Shown: one piece after another, positions 51,644 to 58,823 of the stretch | Position numbering within the stretch: position 1 is the first letter of the stretch | Layout: each line of letters opens with the position of its first letter | Source of the DNA: Ariolimax columbianus | Taxonomy: Eukaryota > Mollusca > Gastropoda > Stylommatophora > Arionidae | Direction: 5' to 3' | Assembly: GCA_036924085.1 (NCBI GenBank) | Contig: JAVGWX010000004.1 | Span: 15,775,454 to 15,839,453, forward strand | Length of the DNA stretch: 64,000 nucleotides | Position numbers and translations under genes: made by a program | Notes under the pieces: generated by a model | Database searches by the model: none | The model's input: the letters and a program-made list of their open reading frames with translations, nothing else | What the model was told of the DNA's origin: nothing

Positions 51644-51656
51644 GAATGACAGATTT
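51644..51656. repeat. Target-site duplication, left (chimeric insert)
   Basis: GAATGACAGATTT, exactly repeated at 58811-58823. This side joins the decayed gene to the ETS-like sequence. Confidence 0.93.
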
Positions 51657-52303
51657 ATCTGGGGTAGTTGTCTCGCCGCAGCGACTCAATTTCAACCAGT
51701 GTTCGTAAAGCGATCTCAGTCCCGCCAGGCGGAGCGATAGCGCGGGCTTGCGGAAAACGCTCGCCTGCCTTTCCCCGTAGTGCGAATTGGGTGCGGTTTG
51801 TGGTAGTGGCTCCTCCACCGAGGTGCGCTAGTCTGGTCCGTATCAGGAAACGTGGTCCGTCCGTGGTGATTTATCTAAGGCTTATAGCAGAGCTCGACAG
51901 TACGTCTCGCTGGTGGTCCGACTCTCGCAAAGAGCTTGTGACCGGCAAATGGAAAGCAGGAATCGTTGCCTCGAGGCCCTGCGTTCTCCCTACGGAGAAG
52001 GGCAGGCCGGCAGGCCAGATTGTCTCTAGTCCCAGTGAAATTCATCGCCGAGGTCGTTGGGATCCGTTCTGCACAGAGCGCTGCCATCCCTCCTCGAGCG
52101 AGCCCGGTCGGTCGGTCGTCTGGTGCGTGTGGGAGGCCCCTGTCAGGCGGTCCTATGTCGACGGAGTGAGGGACGGGTGGAACAAACCGTCCGTTCGTCC
52201 CGTCAGTCGGTCCCTGCGGCCGTCGTCCCAGCGAGGCCTTTTACAAAAACACACCCTTCCTCCGCCGACCGGTGTGTGCTGTACACAGTACGTCTCCGAC
52301 AGA
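51657..52303 (+). other. 5' external transcribed spacer-like sequence
   Basis: GC-rich, unlike the surrounding AT-rich DNA, and directly continuous with the 18S 5' end as in a 45S-type precursor. Open frames over it are composition artefacts. Its left edge is the insertion boundary, so it starts either at the RNA polymerase I start site or where cDNA synthesis stopped. No coding signal. Confidence 0.75.
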
Positions 52304-53470
52304 TATCTGGTTGATCCTGCCAGTAGTCATATGCTTGTCTCAAAGATTAAGCCATGCATGTCTAAGTTCACACTGTCTCACGGTGAAACCGCGAATGGCT
52401 CATTAAATCAGTCGAGGTTCCTTAGATGACACGATCCTACTTGGATAACTGTGGCAATTCTAGAGCTAATACATGCTTACCAAGCTCCGACCCTCGCGGA
52501 AAGAGCGCTTTTATTAGTTCAAAACCAATCGTCGTTTCCCCTCGCGGGGTTGCGGCGTCCCCACTGGTGACTCTGGATAACTTTGTGCTGATCGCATGGC
52601 CTCATGTGCCGGCGACGCATCTTTCAAATGTCTGCCCTATCAAATGTCGAGGGTACGTGACATGCCTACCATGTTTGTAACGGGTAACGGGGAATCAGGG
52701 TTCGATTCCGGAGAGGGAGCATGAGAAACGGCTACCACATCCAAGGAAGGCAGCAGGCGCGCAACTTACCCACTCCCGGCACGGGGAGGTAGTGACGAAA
52801 AATAACAATACGGGACTCTTTCGAGGCCCCGTAATTGGAATGAGTACACTTTAAACCCTTTAACGAGGATCTATTGGAAGGCAAGTCTGGTGCCAGCAGC
52901 CGCGGTAATTCCAGCTCCAATAGCGTATATTAAAGTTGTTGCAGTTAAAAAGCTCGTAGTTGGATCTCAGGCGCAGGCGGGCGGTCCGGCTCGCGCCGGT
53001 TCACTGCCCGTTGTCTCCTGCCCTACCGTCTGCCGGCTCTCTCCCACGGGTGCTCTTCGCTGAGCGTCCTGGGTGGCCGGCGCGTTTACTTTGAAAAAAT
53101 TAGAGTGTTCAAAGCAGGCCTCGGCTGCCTGAATAATGGTGCATGGAATAATGGAATAGGACCTCGGTTCTATTTTGTTGGTTTTCGGAACTGGAGGTAA
53201 TGATTAACAGGGACAAACGGGGGCATTCGTATTGCGGCGTTAGAGGTGAAATTCTTGGATCGCCGCAAGACGAGCTACTGCGAAAGCATTTGTCAAGAAT
53301 GTTTTCATTAATCAAGAACGAAAGTCAGAGGCGCGAAGACGATCAGATACCGTCGTAGTTCTGACCATAAACGATGCCGACTAGCGATCCGCAGGAGTTG
53401 CTTCGATGACTCTGCGGGCAGCTTCCGGGAAACCAAAGTGTTTGGGTTCCGGGGGAAGTATGGTTGCAAA

Positions 53471-53519
<49 letters not shown>

Positions 53520-58600: not shown

Positions 58601-58781
58601 ATGCCCGTGCGGTACTGGTAAAATGACCACTGAACATCTGCTGCAGAACTGCCCGACATACGAGGATCGGAGAGAGCAGATGTGGCCATTGCCAGTGGAA
58701 CTGCAAGACAAGCTCTATGGTAGTGGCGAGAGTCTCAGGATGACCGCCGCTTTTTTCGAAAAAATAATGGTTACTGTCTGA
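55629..58781 (+). CDS. N1 LINE ORF2: endonuclease C-half, reverse transcriptase, RNase H
   Basis: 1,050 codons open. Endonuclease remainder: 'VVVGDFNSHSERWG' (residues 35-48) and 'AGSDHRPIRLTI' (about 112-123). Linker, shortened by about 85 codons relative to the 30-kb copy. Reverse transcriptase: 'GYRPISLLSCVGKL', 'QAGFRQHRSTEDQV', 'VWVDLEKAFDKVW', 'LEQGVPQGGVLSPTLFLVYI', active site 'MFADDLAMW' (FADD at 491-494), 'YLGVTFDRRMTW'. RNase H: 'AYTDGSVTNTTQNGGAGAF' (Asp 790), 'NFRAEAEALRAA', 'LLTDALAVVTAL', 'VQWVPSHCNVQGNEEADRLA', with all four catalytic positions present. A Cys/His knuckle 'CPCGTGKMTTEHLLQNC' ends it. RNase H plus AP endonuclease places it in the I/Nimb group; nimbus elements of Biomphalaria are a plausible relative. 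Confidence 0.95.
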   Translation: MAQETKLRIFNLYGPPTRDLSLSSMEVRDSNCIVVVGDFNSHSERWGYSDTDSRGDEVEDWEIDANLSLINRPEDSPSFYSRTWHTTSTPDLAFSTQDIHYKIDRQVLNQLAGSDHRPIRLTIDMEVGPQETKPLPRWNYKRADWDRFAILTDGLCETINTRNTKMKPMNLDKEGNKLWKLVRAMNDETPSNKQITIKQGENLITGKKAANAFVDHYARANHIEVPADKHTDISEELKGHENINTASEEHMMAKLTMREMEEAMRTLKKRKSPGKDGITNEMLMGLGQTAKKKLLSVLNQSWKRGIVPQAWKDAILVPVPKTGKDKTDPNGYRPISLLSCVGKLMERMINTRLMWHLEEKRILIPQQAGFRQHRSTEDQVILIAQEIEDAYQAQKHTVAVWVDLEKAFDKVWKDGLRVKLRRSDVCGKMYKWINPYLKQRTARVQVQGQMSKKVTLEQGVPQGGVLSPTLFLVYINDITENIPRRVHSSMFADDLAMWTSEKNLTIARNRMQTALTSLEEWANSWLVKINEEKTTCTIFSLSLKPQSTKLSLNGKILQPNDNPTYLGVTFDRRMTWKSQIDRNRRKARERMAIMRKLAGTSWGADEGILKKLYTGSVRPVLEYGIAAWTTAAKANLDKVNKLQNQAMRIITGGMKSTPIVELEKITKLQSMTDRRDCRAQLQSEKLRRLTDHPMYQRLNNLGNGKLKRRNFAEIAKAKMHEDPINALTTPKPITTVRKPTWRQDIFPEVVENIPGIANKNCQTEKERRDTTLSFITKSYPSMDWTHAYTDGSVTNTTQNGGAGAFLNLPNGRKITLSFATGKYTSNFRAEAEALRAAVEEMVTHSENESHIVLLTDALAVVTALKSQKNTELNDLRAALCKLCQQSAPKRVVVQWVPSHCNVQGNEEADRLAKEGARLPQTDTSMTYEESKRLIKARYMTKWETEHTGYTKNDAYYQLNRREQVVVFRLRTGHNRLRYHLFNKLKIGCTDECPCGTGKMTTEHLLQNCPTYEDRREQMWPLPVELQDKLYGSGESLRMTAAFFEKIMVTV

Positions 58782-58810
58782 CTGTGTACGCAGAAGAAGA
58801 AGAAGAAGAA
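58782..58810 (+). other. LINE 3' end with (GAA)n tail
   Basis: The 3' UTR is only about a dozen bases after the stop (CTGTGTACGCA), followed by GAA repeats. The same junction occurs at 36 kb and, reversed, at 21.96 kb, so GAA is the family tail and not a local microsatellite. Confidence 0.9.
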
Positions 58811-58823
58811 GAATGACAGATTT
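58811..58823. repeat. Target-site duplication, right (chimeric insert)
   Basis: GAATGACAGATTT, the partner of 51644-51656. Its first GAA merges with the tail. Confidence 0.93.

What the first reader, a model, noticed from the sequence alone, without database searches (positions are those of the whole stretch)
51644..58823. One retrotransposition event inserted a pre-rRNA/LINE chimera
GAATGACAGATTT flanks a 7.15-kb block that starts with ETS-like DNA, passes through 1.24 kb of 18S and ends as a LINE with its family (GAA)n tail. The identical 13-bp duplication means the rRNA and LINE parts entered together as one cDNA. LINE-U6 and similar chimeras are known, but one carrying spacer plus most of 18S, from unprocessed pre-rRNA, would be unusual and implies contact between LINE RNP and nucleolar RNA.
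Basis: partly seen in the sequence, partly recalled or inferred. Interest (0 to 1): 0.92.

Follow-up and report, generated by a model that had tools for sequence, protein, structure and literature searches.

The report
Ribosomal RNA precursor fused to LINE
A 7.15-kb block flanked by an identical 13-base repeat joins 18S ribosomal RNA sequence, with what is likely its upstream spacer, to a LINE mobile element; it was likely inserted in a single jump, probably because the copying enzyme slipped from the LINE's RNA to a ribosomal RNA precursor at a ribosomal sequence that the LINE already carried.

Summary
GAATGACAGATTT occurs twice in the 64-kb window, exactly at the two ends of a 7,154-bp block (51657-58810): 647 bp of presumed 5' ETS, 1,240 bp of well-preserved 18S, a LINE leader, an APE-RT-RNase H ORF and a (GAA)n tail. 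One target-primed insertion of a composite cDNA is the best reading; the duplication argues against misassembly and against two insertions.

Units 1-3 of a repeat array carry the same 63-nt 18S segment (0, 10 and 5 differences from one reference 18S), followed by a heavily decayed 28S 3' end. Fresh 18S meets the old leader inside that shared segment, in register. I favour homology-guided template switching onto unprocessed pre-rRNA, in a LINE lineage that took up rRNA at least once before.

Not settled: whether this head is unique to this copy or inherited by a subfamily. The window's genome could not be searched, and the ETS is identified by position only. LINE chimeras with other RNAs, including 28S/LINE-1, are known.

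The parts
51644..51656 (+). 5' target-site duplication GAATGACAGATTT
   Evidence: exact match to 58811-58823, only two in the window
51657..52303 (+). presumed 5' external transcribed spacer, 647 bp
   Evidence: position: runs straight into the mature 18S 5' end; no Rfam match up to E 1; not checked against host rDNA
52304..53543 (+). well-preserved 18S, first 1,240 nt
   Evidence: Rfam SSU_rRNA_eukarya 940.5 bits over 52307-53451 plus a match at 53453-53480; alignment to outside 18S
53480..53675 (+). leader unit 1; its 18S segment (53480-53542) is the end of the fresh 18S
   Evidence: repeat family D1, alignment A1
53676..53856 (+). leader unit 2 with an old 18S segment (10 of 63 differ from L006)
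53857..54038 (+). leader unit 3 with an old 18S segment (5 of 63 differ from L006)
   Evidence: Rfam SSU 32.1 bits, E 5.9e-7, below gathering score
54039..54193 (+). partial fourth unit: hairpin kept, 18S segment mostly missing
   Evidence: (D2)
53584..53623 (+). conserved hairpin of the units, copy 1 (others at 53779-53818, 53963-54002, 54125-54164)
   Evidence: repeat family D2; 4 of 9 pairs changed on both sides
54194..54596 (+). decayed 28S 3' end, model positions 3005-3399 of 3401
   Evidence: Rfam LSU_rRNA_eukarya 71.7 bits, E 5.5e-16
55122..58781 (+). LINE ORF: endonuclease, reverse transcriptase, RNase H; internal stop at 55608, about 84 codons missing after 56135 relative to P0001
58793..58810 (+). 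(GAA)6 tail; a seventh GAA is shared with the duplication
58811..58823 (+). 3' target-site duplication GAATGACAGATTT

Best explanation
A 7,154-bp block with the same 13 bp on both sides holds 18S rRNA fused to a LINE; it was likely made in one target-primed insertion in which reverse transcriptase started on the LINE RNA's (GAA)n tail, copied the LINE into an 18S-derived unit of its leader, and there probably switched in register to an unprocessed pre-rRNA, running on towards that RNA's 5' end. Shown by sequence: the duplication, the order and orientation of the parts, the well-preserved 18S continuous with upstream spacer-like DNA, the older 18S and 28S pieces in the leader, and the in-register meeting of fresh and old 18S. 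Inferred: that the upstream 647 bp are ETS, that one cDNA covered it all, that the switch was guided by pairing of the nascent cDNA with pre-rRNA, and that it happened in this insertion rather than in an ancestor. The older pieces suggest that this LINE lineage had taken up rRNA at least once before, and each such piece would act as a landing pad for the next switch.
For: Exact 13-bp duplication at both ends, no other copy on either strand. rRNA and LINE in the same orientation with no tail between them. The 63-nt 18S segment in units 1, 2, 3 differs from L006 at 0, 10 and 5 sites (other references: 1, 11, 5; 1, 11, 5; 3, 11, 7), Fisher p 0.003 for unit 1 against units 2+3 on L006; each segment is followed by the same unit tail. 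The 18S block scores 0.845 bits per model position, within the 0.681-0.993 of seven reference SSU hits; the 28S piece scores 0.182 against 0.789 and 0.511 for two reference LSU hits (bits, division). Two other copies of the LINE in the window have the same (GAA)n tail and their own short duplications, read by eye.
Against: No second copy of the junction and no host rDNA could be examined, so age and uniqueness of the head are unknown. Similarity of the unit tails to 18S beyond the 63 nt is weak: against the next 90 nt of 18S, unit 1 is reached by 32, 3 and 38 of 1,000 shuffles, unit 3 by 6, 68 and 1, unit 2 by 734, 769 and 739 (three references). The 18S block differs at 33 of 527 columns where seven references agree, so some decay is not excluded. 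The sole published junction survey whose passages I read on this point found no homology at fungal chimera junctions (PMC2104539).
Confidence: 0.52

Rival explanations
1. Inherited head: a LINE subfamily already transcribes an RNA that begins with ETS and 18S, and this is an ordinary long copy of it; the switch happened once in an ancestor.
For: The leader already holds older rRNA, so rRNA heads can be inherited; no other copy in the window reaches the leader, so nothing here excludes it.
Against: The 18S block is much better preserved than the rest of the rRNA in the same leader.
Confidence: 0.27
2. Co-transcript: a LINE copy lodged in or recombined with an rDNA unit was transcribed from the rRNA promoter, and that single RNA was inserted; no switch during reverse transcription.
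For: The order ETS, 18S, 28S end, LINE is that of the rDNA unit; R1 copies outside rDNA carry 7-28 bp of upstream 28S (PMC2718515, passages).
Against: The in-register join inside a shared 18S segment would need recombination first; this copy and the two others with a tail lie at different sites outside rDNA.
Confidence: 0.12
3. Template switch at a random point without homology, as in the reader's picture of a plain 18S-LINE junction.
For: Reported for fungal chimeras (PMC2104539, passages).
Against: The unit tail begins after the same 18S base in units 1, 2 and 3.
Confidence: 0.06
4. Misassembly of an rDNA contig, or two separate insertions.
For: rDNA is prone to misassembly (general knowledge).
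Against: The identical 13 bp lie exactly outside both ends; no tail at the end of the 18S and the join is in register.
Confidence: 0.03

Closest known systems
[quoted passage not shown] passages read)
   Same: rRNA 5' of a LINE in one insertion, mostly in sense orientation; the authors suggest RNA ligation or template switching
   Different: 18 loci with 50-482 nt of 28S; here about 1.9 kb of presumed ETS plus 18S, joined inside an older 18S piece; '18S' and 'pre-rRNA' do not occur in that main text as held
WEIRD/MGL chimeras of Magnaporthe grisea (PMC2104539; passages read)
   Same: a long (1.1 kb) non-coding RNA copy 5' of a LINE, with 10-20 bp direct repeats; template switching proposed
   Different: the RNA is not rRNA, and no homology was found at the junctions
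R1 elements of Drosophila inserted outside rDNA (PMC2718515; passages read)
   Same: copies with upstream rRNA sequence at the 5' end
   Different: 7-28 bp only, from an element specific to 28S genes; this LINE is not rDNA-specific in the three copies with a tail seen here
Ingi-type LINEs of gastropods (PMC11203168; passages read)
   Same: endonuclease, RT and RNase H domains; the nearest named proteins are from Batillaria and Littorina, 43-47% identical, and the paper's table lists 273 Ingi sequences for Batillaria
   Different: '18S', 'UTR' and 'ribosom' do not occur in that main text; clade placement was not tested by a tree

Membership tests
LINE/non-coding-RNA chimeric insertion | one target-site duplication encloses both parts | tested here: met
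LINE/non-coding-RNA chimeric insertion | RNA part lies 5' of a LINE that keeps its 3' end | tested here: met
LINE/non-coding-RNA chimeric insertion | the two parts were separate RNAs joined in this very insertion | not testable with these tools
   needs other genomic copies; the genome search did not answer in 12 tries
Ingi clade (I superfamily) | endonuclease, RT and RNase H domains in one ORF | tested here: met
   with one internal stop between pieces
Ingi clade (I superfamily) | RT groups with Ingi in a tree | not tested
   named neighbours only
rDNA-specific LINE (R1/R2 type) | inserts at a fixed site in rRNA genes | tested here: not met
   three copies with tails at different non-rDNA sites with different duplications
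rRNA-derived SINE | short, without an ORF of its own | tested here: not met
   7,154 bp with an endonuclease-RT-RNase H ORF

The most novel reading that the evidence does not exclude
A LINE lineage rebuilds its 5' end from ribosomal RNA again and again: each captured rRNA piece becomes part of the leader and serves as a homology pad on which the nascent cDNA pairs with pre-rRNA in the next round, so the leader is a layered record (28S end, 18S units, fresh 18S plus ETS) and new copies may start at the rRNA gene's own transcription start.
Probability: 0.3. Interest if true: 0.82.

Novelty: new variant of a known kind. Interest (0 to 1): 0.62.

Why it matters
Chimeras of LINEs with other RNAs are known, but how a LINE gains a new 5' end is an old question. 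A leader that holds rRNA pieces of different decay, with the newest fused in register, gives a testable route: homology-guided switching onto the most abundant nuclear transcript. If sister copies show several independent ETS-18S heads, 5' renewal by rRNA capture would be directly readable, and it would place LINE reverse transcription next to unprocessed pre-rRNA.

Tried and rejected
Whole-genome search for further 18S-leader copies and host rDNA: 12 identical calls did not complete. Scans of public contigs: the ORF in viral contigs gave one pattern match and no relative; a 51-base 18S pattern in genome contigs gave 0 matches; a 41-base one in viral contigs gave 0; a 35-base one in genome contigs gave 7 loci, used only as outside 18S/28S references. 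A plasmid-record search gave 153 records, of which I used one. These references are not close relatives of the window's 18S (71-80% identity) and cannot date the block: it differs at 33 of 527 columns where seven references agree, while single references, left out in a similar count, differ at 0 of 556 (L006) or 0 of 509 (L005) up to 49 of 600 (L008).

ETS check through spurious proteins: the frame across spacer and 18S found 1,651 proteins at E up to 1, 120 listed; in those 120 the alignments reaching upstream of the 18S start (residue 213) look gapped or unlike, so nothing confirms or denies the ETS label. The ORF at 54588-54974 of the leader had no relative at E up to 1.

Ribozymes: no ribozyme family among the matches up to E 1 in 51600-55700 or up to E 5 in 53540-54210 and 54580-55400.

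Literature: ten searches ran; one search returned no paper; in the listings of the others I saw no title or abstract start reporting an ETS/18S-headed LINE. Listings show only 10-25 papers each, and subscription journals are mostly not held.

Rows left out: L007 from the alignments and, with L006's partial LSU hit (315.3 bits, model 24-358) and the 5.8S, 5S and intron hits, from the bits-per-position table. In the 63-nt comparison I gave five of eight loci (L001, L003, L004, L006, L008); L003 gave no row because the search string was not found in it. One search used three of eight.

Full report
What is there. The 64-kb window holds GAATGACAGATTT at 51644-51656 and 58811-58823 and nowhere else on either strand. 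Between them lie 7,154 bp. From 5' to 3': 647 bp with no Rfam match up to E 1; 18S rRNA from its mature 5' end at 52304 to 53543; a repeat array from 53480 to about 54193, whose first unit overlaps the end of the 18S; a 28S-like piece 54194-54596; about 0.5 kb with only chance-level Rfam matches (E 3.4-4.6); an ORF with endonuclease, RT and RNase H domains ending at 58781; and (GAA)n. The last GAA can be counted to the tail or to the duplication, so 10 bases are independent of the tail. On the bottom strand the target reads TTC at the presumed nick and could pair with the GAA tail; this is inference.

One event. The duplicate of the LINE's 3' flank lies upstream of the spacer-18S part, and I see no tail between 18S and LINE. 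This is what one target-primed cDNA leaves, and it is hard to get from a misjoined rDNA contig or from two insertions. Other pieces of the LINE in the window: 35073-36021 and 21954-22779 (-), about 98% identical, which end in the same tail with short duplications of their own, 11 bp with one mismatch and 12 bp by eye; 30158-32520 (89-91% in two pieces), without a tail; and 1131-1266 (79%). None reaches the leader, so the window cannot say whether other copies have the rRNA head.

The leader is rRNA-derived. Units 1-3 start at 53480, 53676 and 53857; each begins with the same 63-nt 18S segment (model position 1146 onward) and goes on with the same tail, which includes a hairpin; a fourth, partial unit keeps the hairpin but little of the segment. 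The hairpin is conserved by paired changes: 4 of 9 pairs changed on both sides, 91.7% of 36 cells paired, 1 of 500 shuffles as high on both measures (19 of 500 for further pair types), slid controls at 16.7-50.0% paired. That is four sequences only, and I chose the structure from them. Then comes a decayed copy of the 28S 3' end, model positions 3005-3399 of 3401, 71.7 bits against a gathering score of 50.

Different decay. Against L006 the 63-nt segment has 0, 10 and 5 differences in units 1, 2 and 3; against L001 1, 11, 5; L004 1, 11, 5; L008 3, 11, 7. Fisher p is 0.003 for unit 1 against units 2 and 3 on L006. The 18S block scores 0.845 bits per model position, within the 0.681-0.993 of seven reference SSU hits; the 28S piece scores 0.182 against 0.789 and 0.511. 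The spans differ between rows, so this is a rough yardstick. The references are not close relatives, and the block differs at 33 of 527 columns where all seven agree; much of this is probably lineage change, but without the host 18S I cannot separate it from decay.

In-register junction. Fresh 18S runs to 53543, where the unit tail begins at the same place as in units 2 and 3. Tested on the 90 nt of 18S just past that point, the tails of units 1 and 3 show weak similarity (32, 3 and 38, and 6, 68 and 1, of 1,000 shuffles as high for L006, L001 and L004); unit 2 shows none (734, 769, 739). Tested on the whole reference, unit 1's best hit is in register in three of three references but is reached by 109, 5 and 79 of 200 shuffles; unit 3's in two of three (13 and 13 of 200); unit 2's in none of three. 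The firm part of the argument is the shared 63-nt segment, the weak part its continuation. A switch somewhere in the shared segment explains why old leader and new 18S meet without a shift.

Mechanism. I favour template switching guided by this homology: the nascent cDNA carries the complement of an 18S segment and can pair with pre-rRNA, an abundant nuclear RNA with that sequence. Reading through the mature 18S 5' end into spacer-like DNA points to an unprocessed template. Not shown: ETS identity, arrival at the transcription start, and the event being this insertion. The main rival is an inherited head; then a co-transcript of an rDNA-resident copy, to which the order ETS, 18S, 28S end, LINE would also fit.

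The LINE. The frame 55122-58781 has one internal stop (55608) and lacks 84 codons present in P0001 after 56135, so this copy is probably not autonomous now. Of 1,320 related proteins 120 were listed; the best is 66% identical (P0001, unnamed); the named ones among the listed are from the gastropods Batillaria and Littorina at 43-47%. PMC11203168 (passages) lists 273 Ingi sequences for Batillaria; I use Ingi as a lead, not as a tested placement.

Known context. PMC13174262 (passages) lists 28S/LINE-1 chimeras (18 loci, 50-482 nt, median 269) and says that sense orientation suggests RNA ligation or template switching; '18S' and 'pre-rRNA' do not occur in its main text as held. PMC2104539 (passages) found no homology at fungal chimera junctions. 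In the listings of ten literature searches I saw no LINE with an ETS-18S head. So the kind is known; the length, the likely unprocessed template and the layered rRNA leader are a new variant.

Noticed in passing
51718-51746 and 55219-55245: The presumed ETS and the start of the LINE ORF share AGTCCCGCCAGGC(GG)AGCGATAG. BLAST E 0.014; 1 of 200 shuffles as high; spotted by eye first. Unexplained.
   Followed up: partly
55180-55320: The ORF's N-terminal motif GPxPxxGP..TGG before the endonuclease domain recurs in 21 of 120 listed relatives by one regular expression; its role is unknown.
   Followed up: partly
53584-54164: Four copies of a hairpin in the leader units keep their stem through paired changes, which suggests a functional RNA structure.
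   Followed up: partly
L003:2507-2788, 3895-4227, 7039-7333: A contig filed under a Thermodesulfobacteriota MAG holds eukaryotic 18S, 5.8S and 28S with three group I introns: a contaminant.
   Followed up: no
62778-64000: A 59-bp tandem array, about 20.7 copies at 97% matches, runs to the window's end.
   Followed up: no
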